Source of the DNA: Lachnospiraceae bacterium
GTDB lineage: Bacteria; Bacillota; Clostridia; Lachnospirales; Lachnospiraceae
DNA length: 44,523 bases
NCBI GenBank assembly: GCA_017511045.1
Contig: JAFWLM010000113.1
Coordinates: 1 to 44,523 of the forward strand
Direction: 5' to 3'
Part shown: positions 29,372 through 40,316 of the stretch, one piece after another
Layout of the letters: each line of letters begins with the position of its first letter
How positions within the stretch are numbered: the stretch's first letter is position 1
The notes under the pieces: generated by a model
What the model was told of the DNA's origin: nothing
What the model saw: the letters and a program-made list of their open reading frames with translations, nothing else
The model's database searches: none
Position numbers and translations under genes: made by a program

Positions 29372-30013
29372 ATGATTGATGTAACAAAAGATTCTTCCAA
29401 TTTTGTATTAGTGGCTGATTATATTCCTGCAGTTATTCAGGAGATCCGCTATTATTCGTCCTACAATTTTATCGGTGACCGGATCGACGGATATGAAGCC
29501 CCGGTGGCACTTTTGACCAGAGAGGCTGCAAGAGCGCTGAAGTATGTGAGTGGTGAAATGTTCGTAAAGGGATACCGCCTTAAGATCTTTGATGCTTACC
29601 GTCCGACAACCGCAGTCCGCCATTTTATTCTTTGGGGAATCGAAGATACAGATATCCGGATGAAACCCTATTTCTATCCTGATCTTGAAAAGCAGGAATT
29701 ATTTGCAAAGGGCTATATTGCGAAACAGTCGAGTCACAGCAGAGGCAGTACGGTCGATCTGACACTTCTGGACATGACAACGGGAAAAGAAGTGGATATG
29801 GGAAGTCCGTTTGACTTTTTTGCTGAGATATCCCATCCGGATTATAAAGGCATCACGGATGAGCAATTTGAAAACCGGATGTTTTTACAGGATGCAATGA
29901 AGAGAGCGGGTTTCCTGCCGATCGATTGTGAATGGTGGCATTTCACTTTAGCGGATGAGCCTTATCCTGATACTTATTTCCAATTTCCGGTCACGCTGAA
30001 AGATTTTATTTAA
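29372..30013 (+). CDS. VanX/DdpX-like D-alanyl-D-alanine dipeptidase (peptidase M15D)
   Basis: The 213-residue protein has the VanX zinc site and catalytic set: SSHSRGSTVDLTL (His and Asp ligands in S-x-H-x-x-G-x-x-x-D), EWWHF (catalytic Glu and third zinc His), and DAYRP (transition-state Arg). It hydrolyses D-Ala-D-Ala or similar dipeptides. No signal peptide is visible, so it is probably cytosolic. No vanA/vanH genes are nearby, so cell-wall turnover or dipeptide use is more likely than glycopeptide resistance. Its stop overlaps by 4 bases the end of the convergent MATE gene. Confidence 0.92.
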   Translation: MIDVTKDSSNFVLVADYIPAVIQEIRYYSSYNFIGDRIDGYEAPVALLTREAARALKYVSGEMFVKGYRLKIFDAYRPTTAVRHFILWGIEDTDIRMKPYFYPDLEKQELFAKGYIAKQSSHSRGSTVDLTLLDMTTGKEVDMGSPFDFFAEISHPDYKGITDEQFENRMFLQDAMKRAGFLPIDCEWWHFTLADEPYPDTYFQFPVTLKDFI

Positions 30014-31466: not shown

Positions 31467-31567
31467 AATAATTGAGGGATGGTCTAAGATGCTGGAAGTT
31501 AGAACGTGATTGGCTTATAATACTTATATCAAACAGCTTTTCTCAGCATATAGGAACGGAGGCAGAT

Positions 31568-33172
31568 ATGAAACTTACCTTTATTGGCGCAGATCATGAA
31601 GTTACAGGTTCATGCACATTGATCGAAGCCTGCGGAAAAAATATTCTGGTCGACTGTGGCCTGGAACAGGGGAAAGATACCTACGTGAATTGTGAGATTC
31701 CGGTCGAGGCGGAAAAGATCGATGCGCTCTTTCTTACCCACGCGCATATCGATCATTCCGGAAAGATCCCTGCACTCGTAAAAGCCGGATTCCATGGTCC
31801 AATCTATGCAACGGACGCCACCGGAAAGCTCTGTGACATCATGCTGAAGGACTCTGCGCATATTCAGGAAAGTGAAGCAGAGTGGAAAAACAGAAAGGCG
31901 AAAAGGGCAGGAGGAGAGATCGTTGAACCGATCTATACGGTTCAGGATGCGGAAGCCAGCATGAAGCTCTTTAAATCCTGTTTTTATGATGAAGACTATC
32001 AGGTCTTTGATCAGATCAGGATCCGCTTTTTAGATGCAGGGCATCTTCTTGGATCCTCCAGCATTTTAGTAACGATCACGGAAGACGATGAGACAAGGAC
32101 CATTCTTTTCTCAGGTGATGTCGGAAATGTTGACCGCCCGCTGATCCGTGATCCGCAAAAACCTGATGAAGCAGACTTTGTTATTATTGAGTCGACCTAC
32201 GGAGACCGTACTCATGGAGAGCGGATCGATTATGTGGCCCAGCTTTCTGAGATCATTCAGAGAACACTGGACCGGGGCGGAAATGTTGTGATCCCGTCCT
32301 TTGCCATCGGCCGGACGCAGATCCTGTTATATCTGATCCGTATCATAAAGGAGCAGGGTCTTGTTAAAGGACATGATAACTTTCCGGTCTATGTCGACAG
32401 CCCTCTGGCAGTTGAAGCAACAGCCATCTATTCTTCGCCGCTAACGTCCTTTTTTGACGAGGAAGCTTTGGAACTTTTAGCAAAAGGGATCAATCCGATC
32501 CGTTTTGAGAATCTTCATCTATCTGTTACCACCGATGAATCCAAACAGATCAATTTTGACCGCGAGCCGAAGGTCATCCTTTCGGCATCCGGTATGTGTG
32601 AAGCGGGACGTATCCGCCATCATTTAAAGCATAATCTCTGGAGACCGGAGTCGACAGTCGTATTTGTAGGCTACCAGGTAGAGGGAACGCTTGGACGGAA
32701 GATCAAAAACGGTGCTGATAAGATCAAGCTGTTTAATGAGGAGATCGCCGTAAAAGCGGAAGTGCTTGAGCTTGCGGATATCAGCGGGCATGCAGACAGA
32801 GATATGCTGCTTGACTGGCTGGGAAATTTAAAACAGGCACCAAGAAAAGTGTTTGTGAATCACGGTGATGATGAGGTCTGTGATATCTTTGCGGACAGCA
32901 TTCGTGAGAAACTGGGATTTGATGCTGTCGCACCGTACAGCGGAGATGCATTTGACCTGCTTTCAGAAGACTTTACGGAAAGAGCTGCCATTGTTAAAGC
33001 AGTAAAGAAAAAACAGGCTGCGCATGAAAAAGTATCTGCAGTTTATAATGCACTTTTAGAAGCAGGACAGCGCCTGCTGCGTGTTATTGAGAAAAACAAG
33101 GGCGGCGCGAATAAAGATCTGGAAAAATTCACGGAGAGGATCAATTCACTTTGTGACCGGTATGAGAGATAG
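31568..33172 (+). CDS. Metallo-beta-lactamase / beta-CASP ribonuclease (CPSF73-like)
   Basis: The 534-residue protein shows the metallo-beta-lactamase motifs ADHEVTGSC, THAHIDHSG (residues 57-65), DAGHLLGSS and FSGDVGN. The beta-CASP region has SFAIGRTQILLYLI, VYVDSPLAVEAT, VILSASGMCEAGRI, VGYQVEGTLGR and SGHADR. This bacterial CPSF73/Ysh1-like class has RNA endo- or exonuclease activity dependent on two zinc ions. About 70 C-terminal residues beyond the core are helical and charged. The start at 31568 is fixed by GGAGG 6 bases upstream. TATAAT at 31516-31521 is a likely -10. The RNA target is unknown. Confidence 0.92.
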   Translation: MKLTFIGADHEVTGSCTLIEACGKNILVDCGLEQGKDTYVNCEIPVEAEKIDALFLTHAHIDHSGKIPALVKAGFHGPIYATDATGKLCDIMLKDSAHIQESEAEWKNRKAKRAGGEIVEPIYTVQDAEASMKLFKSCFYDEDYQVFDQIRIRFLDAGHLLGSSSILVTITEDDETRTILFSGDVGNVDRPLIRDPQKPDEADFVIIESTYGDRTHGERIDYVAQLSEIIQRTLDRGGNVVIPSFAIGRTQILLYLIRIIKEQGLVKGHDNFPVYVDSPLAVEATAIYSSPLTSFFDEEALELLAKGINPIRFENLHLSVTTDESKQINFDREPKVILSASGMCEAGRIRHHLKHNLWRPESTVVFVGYQVEGTLGRKIKNGADKIKLFNEEIAVKAEVLELADISGHADRDMLLDWLGNLKQAPRKVFVNHGDDEVCDIFADSIREKLGFDAVAPYSGDAFDLLSEDFTERAAIVKAVKKKQAAHEKVSAVYNALLEAGQRLLRVIEKNKGGANKDLEKFTERINSLCDRYER

Positions 33173-36034: not shown

Positions 36035-36844
36035 ATGGGAAAATGTGCCGTGATCTCCGGCGTATCCGGAGGAATGGGCCTGAAAACGGCAGAAAAGTTT
36101 ATTAATGAAGGCTATGAGGTCTTCGGAATGGACCTCCGGGCCCCGGAGGAGATGGAGCATCTCCACTTTATTCCGACAGACCTAACCAGCATGGCAGAGG
36201 TTCAGGCGGCGTTTCAAACAGTTTCTTCAAAGACAGATGGAGTTGACGCCATCATTCACATGGCGGGGATCTATGACCTGAATTCTCTTGTGGAAATGGG
36301 AGAAGAGGAGTTTATCCGAATCTTCAACGTCAATCTGTTTTCCCAATACAGAATCAACAAAACATTTCTTCCGTTGCTGAAAAAAGACGGCAGGATCATT
36401 ATTACTTCCAGTGAGCTGGCTCCCTTGGATCCGCTCCCGTTTACCGGGATCTATGGAATCACGAAAACCGCTGTGGAAAAATACGCATATTCCCTGCGGA
36501 TGGAACTTCAGCTCCTGGGATATCATGTAAGCGTCTTAAGGCCCGGTGCAATCGATACGGGGCTTTTAGATGTATCCACGAAACGGCTGGATGATTTCTG
36601 TGAGAACACAGAGCTCTATTCCTGCAACGCAGAGCGTTTCAAAAAGATCGTTGACAGCGTGGAATCCAGGAAAGTTTCGCCTGAAAGGATCGCAGATCTG
36701 GCATATAAGTCAGCCATTGCGAAGAGGCCGAAGCTTGTTTATACTATCAATAGAAATCCGTTGTTAATCCTGCTGAATGCACTTCCCGACCGCGTGCAGA
36801 ACAGGATCATTAAAATGATATTAAAAGAGAGGAAACTGTCGTAA
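36035..36844 (+). CDS. Short-chain dehydrogenase/reductase
   Basis: The 269-residue classical SDR carries the cofactor motif SGVSGGMG (residues 8-15), DLRAPEE after beta2 (an acidic residue there favours NAD(H)), HMAGIYDL in place of NNAG, IITSS with catalytic Ser, YGITK with Tyr140 and Lys144, and RPGAIDTG after. About 40 C-terminal residues (KRPKLVYTINRNPLLILLNALPDRVQNRII) resemble the membrane-leaning tails of SDRs related to retinol or sphingoid reductases. The substrate is not predictable. The ribosome binding site lies within an 11-bp inverted repeat. The DJ-1 family gene follows after 41 bases. Confidence 0.9.
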   Translation: MGKCAVISGVSGGMGLKTAEKFINEGYEVFGMDLRAPEEMEHLHFIPTDLTSMAEVQAAFQTVSSKTDGVDAIIHMAGIYDLNSLVEMGEEEFIRIFNVNLFSQYRINKTFLPLLKKDGRIIITSSELAPLDPLPFTGIYGITKTAVEKYAYSLRMELQLLGYHVSVLRPGAIDTGLLDVSTKRLDDFCENTELYSCNAERFKKIVDSVESRKVSPERIADLAYKSAIAKRPKLVYTINRNPLLILLNALPDRVQNRIIKMILKERKLS

Positions 36845-36885
36845 AATAACAAGACAGAAGAATCTTGTACTAGAAAGGATCGATC

Positions 36886-37443
36886 ATGAATCAGGAAAAG
36901 ATTATCGTTATGCTGGCAGAAGGATTTGAAGAAGTTGAAGCGTTGACAACGGTCGATCTGCTTCGCCGGGCTCAGCTTCCGGTCTATACCGTATCTGTTA
37001 CCGGAAGGAGACAGGTAGACGGAGCTCATGGGGTAGCTGTGATCGCAGATAAGGTATTTGAAGATATTGATTTTTCTGAGGTGAGAATGATCATTCTTCC
37101 GGGCGGAATGCCGGGAACGACGAATCTTCTGAACTATGATCCATTGACTGTTGTTCTGAAACAGTTTGCTGCAGAAAACAGACCACTTGGCGCAATCTGC
37201 GCTGCTCCGATGGTATTAGCTGCACATGGTATCCTCAGCGGCAAAAAGGCGACAATCTATGAAGGCATGGAAGAACATTTGAAGGATGCGGTCCCGACCG
37301 AAGGAACAGTTGTGCGGGACGGGAATATCCTGACATCGAAGGGTCCGGGAACTGCGATGGATTTCGCGCTGGCTTTGATCGCATTCCTTGCAGATGAGAT
37401 GAAGGCGGAAGAAGTCAAAGCAGGACTTCTGTATCAAAAGTAA
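36886..37443 (+). CDS. DJ-1/PfpI family protein (YajL-like)
   Basis: The 185-residue flavodoxin-like protein has AEGFEEVEAL with the conserved Glu (residue 15), ILPGGMPGTTNL, and the nucleophile elbow GAICAAPMVLA with Cys105. GKKATIYEGME and TSKGPGTAMDFALALI complete the DJ-1 pattern. Proposed roles of the family are deglycation or repair of glyoxal adducts and redox protection; activity is debated. Length is standard for YajL/DJ-1. AAAGGA lies 6 bases before the ATG. Together with the SDR it may be a small carbonyl-detoxifying pair, which is inference. Confidence 0.93.
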   Translation: MNQEKIIVMLAEGFEEVEALTTVDLLRRAQLPVYTVSVTGRRQVDGAHGVAVIADKVFEDIDFSEVRMIILPGGMPGTTNLLNYDPLTVVLKQFAAENRPLGAICAAPMVLAAHGILSGKKATIYEGMEEHLKDAVPTEGTVVRDGNILTSKGPGTAMDFALALIAFLADEMKAEEVKAGLLYQK

Positions 37444-37569
37444 TAAAGATATAAAAACCTGAGGTGCATTTCGTTCTGTTCGCCTGCTTTTTCTGGATGA
37501 GCTGGCAGGACATCTTGCTCAAATAGAGAATACTTGCGGATCCTGTTTTTGCGAGGTACACTTGTTCTC

Positions 37570-39339
37570 ATGAATCCGGCAAATTCAAAAATAATATCAA
37601 AGCTGTATTTTGGCTTATTGCCCACTCAGATTCTTTTGCTGGCTTTATCAGCAGTAAGCGGAATTATCACAACATTATTTGCAAGTAATGTCATCGGGTC
37701 CATCGCACTCAGTGCGGTAGGCGTTTATAATCCTGTCTATCTTTTTCTCTGTGCACTCAGTGCTATACTGCTGGGCGGTTCACAGATCCTATGTGGCAAA
37801 TTTCTGGGAATGCATCAAATAAAAGAGATGCAGTCCGTGTTTTCTCTTAATATGATCCTTGCCTTGCTGATCTCTGTCATCTTTACTGTGTTGATGTTTG
37901 TGGGAGGTTATTTTGACCTGACAGGTTTTCTTGCTTCGGATGCAGTAGTTCGTCATGAGTTTAATCTTTATATCATTGGACTGGCAGGAGGCGTCATTCC
38001 CTTCCTCTTAAGCCAGCAACTGTTTGCATTTCTGACTTTGGAACAGCAGAACTCCAGACTGATCTTTTCCAGTGTCGTATATATTGTTTCGACTGTGTTT
38101 TTTACATATCTGTTCCTCTGCGTCTTTCCTCTTGGAACATTTGGACTTGGACTTTCAGGAGCAGCAGGCAACTGGGCTTTTCTAATTTCGCTGCTGCCGT
38201 ACTTTTTCAGAAAGGACTGTTTATATAAGCTCCGATTTAAAGAAATCAAGCGCCATTATTTGAAAGAAATGATTGCATGTGGTCTTCCGGGCGCCATGCT
38301 GAGAATCTATCAGACAGTCAGTACCTTGATCGCCAATACATTGCTTCTTACATATGTCGGTGCAGACGGACTGGCTGCTGTTAGTTCTGTTATGTCACTG
38401 GTAGAGGTTTTCTGGGCTGTTCCTGATGGAATGGAAATCGTAGCCCGTGTCCTGTTCAGTGTTTCGGTTGGAGAAGAGGACAAACATTCTCTGACGGACA
38501 TTATGCGTACCGTTATATTTAAGAGTATACCTCTCATAGCAATACTTGCTGCGGTCATGGTATGTCTGGCTGTTCCCTTTACGAATTGCTTTTATCACGA
38601 TCCGTCGCTTCCTGTTTATCAGATGACTGTGGCTGGTTTTCGAATTATCCCGATCTGTTTGCCTTTCGTTGTTCTTTGCCTGAGTTTTGAGAATTATGCA
38701 GAGGCATCCGGAAAACATGTGTTGGCACATATAGCAACTGCTTTATATGGAGTGATTATTGTGTCATTGATTTCAATCTTTCTGATTCGAAGAATTGGAG
38801 TGCAGGGTTTCATGCTGGCAAATGTTATAGGCTGGGCACTCTCTTTTCTAATTTTTCTTTTATATGCTGTCATCAAAAACAAACATTTCCCTAAAACAAT
38901 GGAGGAATGGATGGTGATTCCAAAAGACTTTGGCGTCGATGATAAAGATCGTATGGATATTTCCGTTCAAACAATGGAAGGTGTTGTCCGCGTTTCGGAA
39001 ATGGTACAGCAGTTTTGCGAATCGCATGGAGTGAAAAAAAAGAAAGCATTCTATGCAGCGCTGTGTATGGAGGAAATGGCAGGAAATGTCGTTTCACATG
39101 GCTTTACAAAAGATAATAAAAATCATTCAGTGGATATTCGCGTGTCATATAAAGAAGACACACTGATTCTAAGGATCAAGGACGACTGTATTCAATTTGA
39201 TCCCGCGGAAAGGAAAGATATTCTGGATCCGGACGATATATGTAAAAATGTTGGAATCCGTATGGTATATCAAATCGCGAATGATATTGAATATCAGAAT
39301 ATGCTGGGACTTAATGTCCTTACGATACGTCTTGTGTAA
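37570..39339 (+). CDS. MATE-like transporter fused to a C-terminal RsbW/SpoIIAB-type ATPase domain
   Basis: About 440 of the 589 residues form 12 membrane helices of MATE type (SKLYFGLLPTQILLLALSAVSGIITTLFAS, GGSQILCGKFLGM, ACGLPGAMLRIYQTVSTLIAN). A cytosolic C-terminal domain of about 130 residues follows. It has the GHKL features of anti-sigma kinases: CMEEMAGNVVSHGF (N-box, 500-512), LRIKDDCIQFDP (G1-like, Asp538/Asp539), and NVGIRMVYQIANDIEYQ (G2-like) leading into the final strands. This is an unusual fusion. It could sense ATP or a STAS-like partner and gate transport. GAGG lies 13 bases before the ATG; an in-frame TTG at 37534 is less likely. The protein is intact. Confidence 0.85.
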   Translation: MNPANSKIISKLYFGLLPTQILLLALSAVSGIITTLFASNVIGSIALSAVGVYNPVYLFLCALSAILLGGSQILCGKFLGMHQIKEMQSVFSLNMILALLISVIFTVLMFVGGYFDLTGFLASDAVVRHEFNLYIIGLAGGVIPFLLSQQLFAFLTLEQQNSRLIFSSVVYIVSTVFFTYLFLCVFPLGTFGLGLSGAAGNWAFLISLLPYFFRKDCLYKLRFKEIKRHYLKEMIACGLPGAMLRIYQTVSTLIANTLLLTYVGADGLAAVSSVMSLVEVFWAVPDGMEIVARVLFSVSVGEEDKHSLTDIMRTVIFKSIPLIAILAAVMVCLAVPFTNCFYHDPSLPVYQMTVAGFRIIPICLPFVVLCLSFENYAEASGKHVLAHIATALYGVIIVSLISIFLIRRIGVQGFMLANVIGWALSFLIFLLYAVIKNKHFPKTMEEWMVIPKDFGVDDKDRMDISVQTMEGVVRVSEMVQQFCESHGVKKKKAFYAALCMEEMAGNVVSHGFTKDNKNHSVDIRVSYKEDTLILRIKDDCIQFDPAERKDILDPDDICKNVGIRMVYQIANDIEYQNMLGLNVLTIRLV

Positions 39340-39356
39340 AGAAATCGGCAGGAAAA

Positions 39357-39419
39357 GCCACGTCGATTCCTTCACTCTCACGAGTTCGGAATCTCCTTGT
39401 TCAAATCCCTGCATTGAAC
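39357..39419. repeat. 63-bp structured direct repeat, copy 1
   Basis: It is identical to 39506-39568 except at one base (39413). It contains a nested hairpin, GATTCC / ACTC-TCAC-GAGT / GGAATC (39365-39393), and ends in GTTCAAATCCCTGC, which also occurs in the T-arm of the adjacent tRNA-Ser. It begins 18 bases after the MATE-HATPase stop codon. Confidence 0.85.
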
Positions 39420-39429
39420 CTAGACAACA

Positions 39430-39456
39430 AAAAAAGATGCCACAGGCATCTTTTTT
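39430..39456. terminator. Terminator following repeat copy 1, both strands
   Basis: GATGCC/GGCATC with loop ACA is extended by six A-T pairs (39430-39435 with 39451-39456). T-runs exist on both strands, so it can end plus- and minus-strand transcripts, including that of the MATE-HATPase gene. Confidence 0.85.
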
Positions 39457-39461
39457 CGTCG

Positions 39462-39481
39462 GTACGGAGAAGCAGGGATTT
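39462..39481 (-). repeat. 20-bp copy of the tRNA-Ser 3' end
   Basis: These 20 bases are identical to 39611-39630, the 3' end (acceptor strand, discriminator base and part of the T-arm) of the tRNA-Ser gene plus its first downstream bases. The rest of a tRNA is absent, so this is a fragment, possibly an old attachment site or a product of the 149-bp tandem duplication. Confidence 0.75.
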
Positions 39482-39561
39482 CCACCGGGGCTGCGCCCCT
39501 TTCAGGCCACGTCGATTCCTTCACTCTCACGAGTTCGGAATCTCCTTGTTCAAATCCCTGC
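39472..39561. ncRNA. Candidate three-way-junction structured RNA element
   Basis: GCAGGGATTT (39472-39481) and AAATCCCTGC (39552-39561) form a perfect 10-bp closing stem. It encloses hairpin GGGGC-TGC-GCCCC (39487-39499) and the nested GATTCC ... GGAATC hairpin of repeat copy 2. Terminators lie immediately outside on both sides. Strand, promoter and expression are unknown. It may be a non-coding RNA or a DNA-level element. Confidence 0.4.
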
Positions 39562-39568
39562 CTTGAAC
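39506..39568. repeat. 63-bp structured direct repeat, copy 2
   Basis: This is the second copy of the 39357-39419 repeat, exactly 149 bases downstream with one mismatch in 63. The same 149-base offset separates the tRNA fragment from the tRNA gene, so the whole unit was duplicated in tandem. Confidence 0.85.
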
Positions 39569-39575
39569 AACATAC

Positions 39576-39605
39576 AAAAAAACAAGGACCCACTGGGTCC
39601 TTGTT
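39576..39605 (-). terminator. Terminator of tRNA-Ser
   Basis: An 11-bp stem (39581-39591 with 39595-39605), loop of three bases, is followed on the minus strand by seven T. It starts about 10 bases past the tRNA 3' end. The plus strand also has TTCTTTT after it. Confidence 0.85.
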
Positions 39606-39614
39606 CTTTTGTAC

Positions 39615-39703
39615 GGAGAAGCAGGGATTTGAACCCTGGCGCCGCTATTAACGACCTACTCCCTTTCCAGGGGAGCCCCTTCGGCCAGCTTGGGTACTTC
39701 TCC
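39615..39703 (-). tRNA. tRNA-Ser (anticodon GGA)
   Basis: The 89-base gene folds as a class II tRNA. Acceptor stem GGAGAAG/CTTCTCC pairs fully, with discriminator G. The D-arm is CCC/GGG and the anticodon stem CTCCC/GGGAG with loop CTGGAAA (anticodon GGA at 39666-39668). The long variable arm TAGGTCGTTAATAGCGGCG is typical of serine tRNAs, and the T-arm has GGTTCAAATCC. CCA is not encoded. Confidence 0.97.
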
Positions 39704-39734
39704 AAAAGCTCGCTTCAATTTACGAACATCCAAT

Positions 39735-39763
39735 ACTTTACACGATTTCCCTATTAAAAGCAA
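39735..39763 (-). promoter_or_regulatory. tRNA-Ser promoter
   Basis: On the minus strand TTGCTT (complement of 39758-39763), a 17-base spacer and TAAAGT (complement of 39735-39740) lie about 32 bases upstream of the mature tRNA 5' end. Confidence 0.6.
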
Positions 39764-39797
39764 GGACTTTTCCTCGAATTATTTGCCATATTTGTCT

Positions 39798-39826
39798 TTG
39801 CTTATTAAACCGTATTTTCTTATAAT
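39798..39826 (+). promoter_or_regulatory. Promoter of the hotdog thioesterase gene
   Basis: TTGCTT (39798-39803), a 17-base spacer and TATAAT (39821-39826) lie about 20 bases upstream of the AAAGGAG ribosome binding site. Confidence 0.7.
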
Positions 39827-39860
39827 AATTAGCAATTAAAAGAGACAAAGGAGTTTTCAA

Positions 39861-40259
39861 GTGGAAAGAAATCTAGAGGAAGTCCGGAAGTTCTTTTCGG
39901 GGGATAAATACGCAACCAAACTGACGGGAATCGAGATCGAAGATGCGAAGGAGAATTACTCCAGATGCACACTTGTTTTAAATGATGATCATAAAAACCT
40001 GTTTGGGGATGTCATGGGAGGCGCGCTTTTTACTTTGGCGGACTTTGCTTTTGCTGTAGCAGCAAACCGGCCGAATGATTATACGGCAACACTCACCAGT
40101 GAGATTCGCTATCTTGCGCAGAGCAAAGGTTCTGTTCTGACTGCAGAATGCAAAGTCGTTAAGAATGGAAGACGAACCTGCTTTGCAGACATTGAGATCA
40201 AGGACGACCTTGGTGTAACAGTCGCCCTCGTAACAGCCAGCGGCATGCATATCAAATAA
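39861..40259 (+). CDS. PaaI-like hotdog-fold thioesterase
   Basis: This 132-residue hotdog protein has the PaaI/YdiI-type signature: NLFGDVMGGALFTLADFAFAVAAN, where H-G/G-D-x-x-G-G-A-x-x-x-x-A-D sits on the central helix, followed by TLTSEIRYLAQSKGSVLTAEC and GRRTCFADIEIKDD. It should hydrolyse a small acyl-CoA thioester in the cytosol. The start is GTG with AAAGGAG 7 bases upstream. A terminator follows, so the gene is likely monocistronic. The specific acyl-CoA is unknown. Confidence 0.9.
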   Translation: MERNLEEVRKFFSGDKYATKLTGIEIEDAKENYSRCTLVLNDDHKNLFGDVMGGALFTLADFAFAVAANRPNDYTATLTSEIRYLAQSKGSVLTAECKVVKNGRRTCFADIEIKDDLGVTVALVTASGMHIK

Positions 40260-40289
40260 GCTATGCATCTTCATATATTGGATTATTTA

Positions 40290-40316
40290 AAAACCGGCCT
40301 GAAAGCCGGTTTTCTT
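40290..40316 (+). terminator. Rho-independent terminator after the thioesterase gene
   Basis: A 9-bp stem (AAAACCGGC 40290-40298 with GCCGGTTTT 40305-40313) has loop CTGAAA and is followed by CTTATT. An open frame that runs through it upstream of the next gene is therefore not coding. Confidence 0.8.

What the first reader, a model, noticed from the sequence alone, without database searches (positions are those of the whole stretch)
37570..39339. MATE-like transporter fused to an anti-sigma-factor-type ATPase
Twelve MATE-type helices continue without interruption into a GHKL domain with EEMAGNVVSHG (N-box), KDDCIQFDP and NVGIRMVYQIAND, the pattern of RsbW/SpoIIAB kinases. To my knowledge this pairing has no described function. 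It could be a transporter gated by ATP or partner binding, a membrane-tethered serine kinase acting on a STAS protein, or a sensor in which transport controls a sigma or phosphorylation switch. The usual Gly of the G1 box is replaced by Cys540, which may alter nucleotide handling.
Basis: partly seen in the sequence, partly recalled or inferred. Interest (0 to 1): 0.75.

Follow-up and report, generated by a model that had tools for sequence, protein, structure and literature searches.

The report
MATE exporter fused to RsbW-like domain
A bacterial membrane pump is built in one piece with a regulatory ATP-binding domain of the kind that usually controls sigma factors, and many of its relatives sit beside the matching regulatory genes, which suggests that a known on/off protein switch here controls a transporter directly.

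Summary
Window 37570-39339 (+) is one intact 589-aa ORF: a MATE transporter continuing into a HATPase_c_2 (RsbW/SpoIIAB-type GHKL) domain. It is an old, diverse family: 55 listed copies in 29 of 250 same-family genomes. Cys540 is invariant in 79 of 79 aligned rows (window plus 78 close relatives), together with a reduced G2 box; the N-box Glu/Asn and the DxG Asp are kept. STAS genes lie within 8 kb of 16 of 55 fusions (1.5 expected) and SpoIIE-phosphatase genes of 12 (1.05 expected); plain MATEs 2 of 104. GH3 and NRPS genes are enriched too. The window has no such neighbour, but its genome has a STAS-APH-GHKL protein, a SpoIIE phosphatase and a STAS protein together on contig C46. Most likely the fusion is a transporter whose GHKL tail is docked or released by a phosphorylation-switched STAS protein. 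The window's copy lacks the DinF-type proton-site Asp pair and a clade-typical Arg/Asp pair, so it may be mainly a sensor. No description was found in nine paper searches.

The parts
37570..39339 (+). MATE-GHKL fusion gene, 589 aa plus stop (ATG chosen; the ORF listing begins at an upstream TTG, 37534)
37570..38889 (+). MATE transporter part, about residues 1-440
   Evidence: Pfam MatE; TIGR00797 match 24-390, under its cut-off; PfMATE profile match 29-434
38977..39330 (+). HATPase_c_2 (RsbW/SpoIIAB-type GHKL) domain
39073..39087 (+). N-box E502-N506
   Evidence: E502 45/45, N506 42/45 rows of the wide alignment
39181..39189 (+). D538-D539-C540, G1 box with Cys for Gly
   Evidence: C540 79/79 rows of the close clade, 28/45 of the wide set
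39247..39255 (+). reduced G2 box, N560-V561-G562, at the place of GGLG
37669..37671 (+). T34, at the place of PfMATE D41 (TM1)
   Evidence: alignment; D in 38/45 wide rows, S 69 / T 10 in the close clade
38104..38106 (+). T179, at the place of PfMATE D184
   Evidence: alignment; N 70 / D 8 / T 1 in the close clade
38470..38481 (+). G301-E302-E303-D304, acidic stretch invariant in the close clade
   Evidence: E302, E303, D304 79/79 rows; D304 40/45 wide rows

Best explanation
A secondary transporter of the MATE family that carries its own partner-switch receptor. Shown: the fusion architecture, its conservation, the retained N-box Glu/Asn and DxG Asp, and linkage of the family with STAS, SpoIIE-phosphatase and STAS-APH genes. 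Inferred: the GHKL tail binds ATP in an altered way and binds a dephosphorylated STAS protein; a sensor phosphatase (SpoIIE) dephosphorylates the STAS serine; a GHKL kinase (the tail itself, or the canonical GHKL of a STAS-APH-GHKL protein) rephosphorylates it; STAS docking on the tail opens, closes or stabilises the MATE part. In relatives the cargo is probably the product of neighbouring adenylate-forming enzymes (GH3, NRPS). In the window's genome the partners would act in trans from contig C46.
For: Architecture. STAS within 8 kb of 16/55 fusions (1.51 expected) and SpoIIE of 12/55 (1.05 expected), 21/55 together by my own count from the two lists; plain MATEs 2/104. SpoIIE and fusion genes abut with gaps of 2, -3, -78 and 19 nt (L055, L115, L091, L123); STAS-APH-GHKL, fusion, STAS with gaps of 29 and 19 nt (L148). 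24 of 80 named loci hold a partner gene, 22 of them by a STAS or SpoIIE profile hit (one search gave 23 because one gene in L131 had been mislabelled as a fusion). The serine motif of STAS is found in 32 of 34 STAS ORFs listed. Fusion and STAS-APH genes co-occur over 250 genomes, 14/13/19/204, odds ratio 11.6. Own genome: STAS-APH-GHKL, SpoIIE, PHP and STAS in a row on C46; three of these four kinds (STAS, STAS-APH, PHP; no SpoIIE) stand with the fusion in L077, L148 and L150. The genome has two HATPase_c_2 domains over cut-off, the C46 one and this fusion. GH3 near 9/55 fusions (0.21 expected; 7 of 11 GH3 genes), NRPS condensation domains near 11/55 (1.0 expected). Precedent for a STAS protein acting on a transporter: MlaB-MlaF (PMC7367683, abstract).
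Against: No partner gene lies in the window. The same-genus genome G219 has the STAS-APH gene without a fusion, so the two are not obligate partners; 13 of 27 STAS-APH genomes lack a listed fusion. 34 of 55 fusions have no STAS or SpoIIE hit within 8 kb. At least one STAS hit near a fusion (G041, ORF of 563 aa) may be a SulP transporter. No binding, kinase or transport data. G1 and G2 changes make a normal ATP site doubtful. In the window's clade the DinF-type acidic pair is gone (T34, T179), and this copy alone of 79 rows lacks both R251 and D393, which speaks against ordinary H+-coupled export by this copy. Its genome has no GH3 or condensation hit.
Confidence: 0.5

Rival explanations
1. Tethered kinase or sensor: the MATE part has become a receptor and the GHKL phosphorylates or sequesters a STAS protein, so the output is a signal. 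Most plausible for the window's own copy.
For: N-box and DxG Asp kept while the MATE part of the window's clade lacks the D41/D184 pair; in DinF-BH, D40N and D184N abolish transport (PMC4866600, passages; that its D184 is the same site as PfMATE D184 is my presumption); the window copy lost R251 and D393 too.
Against: Most wide-set rows keep D34 (38/45) and D179 (30/45), so transport is the likely ancestral role; NorM and eukaryotic MATEs carry Asn at the D184 place; the MATE part stays well conserved in the clade; G1 and G2 changes argue against a strong kinase.
Confidence: 0.27
2. Docking platform: GHKL-STAS is a switchable clasp that brings STAS-tagged enzymes (GH3-STAS, STAS-APH) to an exporter, so that synthesis and export are coupled at the membrane.
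For: GH3-STAS fusion 29 nt after the MATE-GHKL gene in L128; GH3 and NRPS linkage; tails of L181 and L182 without a Pfam GHKL hit still end in a YxxxLGxN motif (motif read by eye).
Against: Only one GH3-STAS fusion seen; own genome has no GH3 or condensation hit.
Confidence: 0.13
3. ATP hydrolysis by the GHKL domain powers transport.
For: An ATP-binding domain in one chain with a transporter.
Against: GHKL kinases of this group are switches, not motors (general knowledge); G1 and G2 altered in the whole close clade.
Confidence: 0.03
4. Fusion without functional coupling.
For: Some members have degenerate tails: N-box Asn lost in 3 of 45 rows.
Against: Broad conservation, motif conservation and linkage with the cognate partner genes.
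Confidence: 0.03

Closest known systems
RsbW / SpoIIAB anti-sigma serine kinases (HATPase_c_2)
   Same: Domain family, N-box Glu/Asn, DxG Asp; STAS and SpoIIE-type genes nearby in relatives
   Different: Fused to a MATE transporter, Cys in G1, KN[I/V]G for GGLG; far below the RsbW equivalog cut-offs (18.2 of 145 and 17.7 of 155 bits)
DinF-subfamily MATE transporters (PfMATE, DinF-BH)
   Same: Full-length MATE part; most of the wider family keeps the TM1 Asp
   Different: C-terminal regulatory domain; the window's clade lacks the D41/D184 pair
MlaB-MlaF, a STAS protein on an ABC transporter (PMC7367683, abstract)
   Same: A STAS protein acting on a transporter
   Different: There STAS binds an ABC ATPase; here the transporter carries a STAS-binding type of domain
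CapK/CapS and VapK/VapS, GHKL-STAS kinase pairs (PMC13373217, passages)
   Same: GHKL-STAS serine switch put to a non-sigma output
   Different: No transporter; activated by single-stranded DNA; control a repressor or a toxin
SypE/SypA of Vibrio fischeri (PMC8256260, passages)
   Same: Partner switch with a biofilm output, target unknown
   Different: No transporter domain

Membership tests
MATE family | Pfam MatE over cut-off | tested here: met
   64 against 24.9 bits
MATE family | TIGR00797 MATE efflux subfamily cut-off | tested here: not met
   88.1 against 147.4 bits
MATE family | Alignment along solved MATE structures | tested here: met
   clade profile 29-434 on PfMATE, E 1e-23
DinF-type H+-coupled MATE | N-lobe Asp pair (PfMATE D41, D184) | tested here: not met
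   T34 and T179
MATE family | Transport activity | not testable with these tools
   none
HATPase_c_2 GHKL domains | Pfam over cut-off | tested here: met
   47.2 against 27.4 bits; profile match with canonical GHKLs 98.8%; PDB sequence search only RsbW at E 0.067
RsbW anti-sigma B factor | NCBIfam equivalog cut-offs | tested here: not met
   18.2 of 145 and 17.7 of 155.05 bits
Active GHKL serine kinase | N-box Glu and Asn, DxG Asp | tested here: met
   E502, N506, D538
Active GHKL serine kinase | G1 Gly and G2 GGLG | tested here: not met
   Cys540 and KNVG
Active GHKL serine kinase | Phosphorylates a STAS serine | not testable with these tools
   none
Partner-switching module | STAS with the serine motif and a SpoIIE phosphatase in the genome | tested here: met
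   contig C46
Partner-switching module | Components beside this fusion in the window | tested here: not met
   no STAS or SpoIIE hit on C78
Partner-switching module | Components beside the fusion in relatives | tested here: met
   21/55, 24/80
Partner-switching module | Cognate sigma factor | not tested
   none

The most novel reading that the evidence does not exclude
A partner-switching circuit whose direct output is a membrane transporter and not a sigma factor: the MATE protein carries the GHKL receptor, a STAS protein is the switch, a SpoIIE phosphatase the input, and in relatives the same switch also clasps adenylate-forming enzymes (GH3-STAS, NRPS clusters), so that making and exporting a small molecule is turned on and off as one unit.
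Probability: 0.4. Interest if true: 0.8.

Novelty: new variant of a known kind. Interest (0 to 1): 0.62.

Why it matters
Partner switching by GHKL kinases and STAS proteins is known mainly for control of transcription. A large family in gut and rumen bacteria that welds the GHKL part to an exporter, often beside STAS and phosphatase genes and sometimes beside GH3 or NRPS enzymes, would be a direct post-translational control of secondary transport. It gives a testable system (loci in Butyrivibrio sp. records) and a way to find small-molecule pathways in these bacteria.

Tried and rejected
Insertion at the tRNA-Ser: the one same-genus genome with a close thioesterase neighbour (G649, L189) shows no further shared synteny, so nothing was learned. 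Rfam on 36800-40300: no hit. Single-protein scan of genome contigs: nothing. The tail against PDB sequences: only RsbW 6m36 at E 0.067, too weak alone. Three of the phylum-wide matches (L160, L162, L163) proved to be 5TMR-SpoIIE with GHKL and STAS, not MATE, and were dropped; L156, L157, L158, L159 and L161 stay. One row of the tree (U_L169) is probably a wrong ORF and was left in. PMC8215763 was opened because it held GH3; there GH3 means a glycoside hydrolase family, so it is unrelated.

Limits of counts. One search scored at most 5 candidates per genome and its list is cut, so 55 is a lower bound; it includes a few partial matches and leaves out one tail-only match (G120:C6). Of the SpoIIE rows I used 80 of 98 (18 weak or partial ones under 30 bits dropped), of GH3 rows 11 of 14, of Condensation rows 50 of 54; all 101 STAS rows were used. 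STAS-APH genomes were those with E under 1e-30 (27); two weaker ones, G233 and G224, both with fusions, were left out. One search used 10 genomes that I chose because a fusion there lay near a partner gene, so its fusion side (15/22) is biased; only the unfused side (2/104, from a cut list, second-domain rows and ORFs of 560 aa or more dropped) is used, against 21/55. E501, E502 and N506 are invariant by construction in the 80 named loci (search pattern). L079 and L148 were left out of the 79-row alignment because their match length implied an indel. Poisson values treat related loci as independent. In one search five named loci got no fusion ORF from my ORF picker and one STAS-APH-GHKL gene (L131) was mislabelled a fusion; one search recounts with the match coordinates.

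Full report
Observation. Window 37570-39339 (+) holds one ORF of 589 aa without internal stops. Pfam gives MatE (64 bits, cut-off 24.9) and HATPase_c_2 (47.2 bits, cut-off 27.4; residues 470-587). A profile of the C-terminal domain (54 rows, A3) aligns with 11 GHKL domains taken from partner-switching genes (A4) at 98.8% probability; DDC lies at the place of DSG and KNVG at the place of GGLG. Against PDB sequences the clade profile matches PfMATE (E 1e-23) and DinF-BH (about 5e-18); the tail alone gives only RsbW at E 0.067.

Distribution. In 250 genomes of the same family, 55 listed matches that cover the tail lie in 29 genomes, several in some genomes. Four more genomes (G161, G241, G046, G158) have such a match, 33 of 250 in all, a lower bound. 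In the genus 6 of 14 genomes, the own one included, have one at E <= 1e-20. Over the phylum 9 of 398 genomes match the tail profile at 1e-10; of the eight matches other than the window and G207, five are MATE fusions and three are SpoIIE, GHKL and STAS genes without MATE. Labels such as Chloroflexi, Coriobacteriaceae or Spirochaetales may be binning errors. In a tree of the MATE part (86 rows, midpoint root) 61 fused rows need 6 changes of label against 21.9 in shuffles, and 20 of 22 unfused rows form one group (99/96): an old family with few gains or losses of the tail.

Residues. In 45 diverse rows (window included) E502 is kept in 45, N506 in 42, D538 in 42, G562 in 41; position 540 is C in 28 and G in 15. 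In 79 rows of the close clade (window and 78 loci) C540, D538, D539, E302, E303, D304 and G562 are invariant. Separate, non-MATE GHKLs at such loci and in L072 keep DxG in 12 of 12, and a thirteenth, L131, does so too; GGLG is invariant in the 11 aligned. So where a module also holds a separate GHKL, that one is canonical and the membrane-bound one is altered. In the MATE part PfMATE D41 and D184 fall on T34 and T179. D34 is kept in 38/45 wide rows, but the close clade has S (69) or T (10); position 179 is D in 30/45 wide rows and N in 70/79 close rows. In DinF-BH, D40N and D184N abolish transport, though NorM and eukaryotic MATEs carry Asn at the D184 place (PMC4866600, passages). The window protein is alone among 79 rows in lacking both R251 and D393.

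Partners. STAS lies within 8 kb of 16 of 55 fusions (1.51 expected, P 8e-12), SpoIIE of 12 (1.05 expected, P 1.4e-9), either of them of 21. Of 104 listed plain MATEs in ten of these genomes 2 have such a neighbour, one of them on the same contig stretch as a fusion (G234). GH3 lies near 9 of 55 (0.21 expected; 7 of 11 GH3 genes) and NRPS condensation domains near 11 (1.0 expected). Gene orders: STAS-APH-GHKL, fusion, STAS (L148); STAS, SpoIIE-GHKL, STAS-APH, peptidase, fusion (L121); GHKL, STAS-APH, STAS, fusion, GH3-STAS (L128); STAS, fusion, GH3, SpoIIE, GHKL, two further genes, a second fusion, an AMP-binding-like enzyme (its L044 cluster mate is under the Pfam cut-off) and an NRPS (L047). 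The STAS serine motif is found in 32 of 34 STAS ORFs. Of 80 named loci, some cut short by contig ends, 24 hold a partner gene.

Own genome. The window's contig has no STAS or SpoIIE hit. Contig C46 has STAS-APH-GHKL, SpoIIE phosphatase, a PHP protein and STAS in a row (PHP by clustering with a Pfam-tested relative). STAS, STAS-APH and PHP genes, without SpoIIE, stand with the fusion in L077, L148 and L150. The genome (81% complete) has two HATPase_c_2 domains over cut-off, the C46 one and this fusion, two STAS hits, both on C46, and two SpoIIE hits, on C46 and C87 (the C87 protein has 5TM-5TMR_LYT and SpoIIE domains). It has no GH3 or condensation hit. Against this pairing: the same-genus genome G219 has the STAS-APH gene without the fusion.

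Reading. The family most likely is a set of transporters with a built-in partner-switch receptor; a STAS protein, set by SpoIIE and a GHKL kinase, docks on the tail. That step is inferred. For the window's copy, loss of the acidic transport residues with an intact N-box raises the share of a sensor or tethered-kinase reading. Nine paper searches in an open-licence library listed no description of this fusion; the two papers use HATPase_c_2 only as a search model or in an abbreviation list (passages). Precedents: MlaB-MlaF (abstract), the review of STAS-only proteins (passages), CapK/CapS (passages), and a Pseudomonas MATE gene beside the IAA-lysine synthase gene iaaL (PMC7074806, passages).

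Noticed in passing
window 39357-39568: A 63-nt direct repeat (98%) occurs twice, 149 nt apart, between the fusion's stop and tRNA-Ser, each followed by an inverted repeat; a nearby 48-nt stretch (39449-39496) is 77% like 39598-39645, which runs into the tRNA-Ser gene.
   Followed up: partly
L060 7512-10166: A MATE-GHKL fusion with a third, C-terminal HD-CE domain, 884 aa.
   Followed up: partly
L128 9787-11829: A GH3 enzyme fused to a STAS domain, 29 nt after a MATE-GHKL gene.
   Followed up: partly
L072 3935-5551; L070 15226-16806; L121 6056-7240: STAS-APH-HATPase_c_2 proteins: a partner-switch pair with a phosphotransferase-like (APH) domain between; in L121 without the GHKL part. Role unknown.
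   Followed up: partly
L179, L181, L182: MATE proteins of 563-587 aa whose C-terminal tails give no Pfam GHKL hit; perhaps decayed receptors.
   Followed up: partly
L081, L087, L119, L121, L122; window 29372-30013: A gene of an M15 D-Ala-D-Ala dipeptidase cluster sits next to the fusion in five named loci; the window has a relative about 7.5 kb away.
   Followed up: no
window 37570-39336: The MATE part matches phrog_6241, a phage protein family of unknown function, E 8.7e-31.
   Followed up: no
window 31472-33172: Beta-CASP nuclease scoring 407 bits on the 'type VII Cas14' model, under its cut-off of 800.
   Followed up: no
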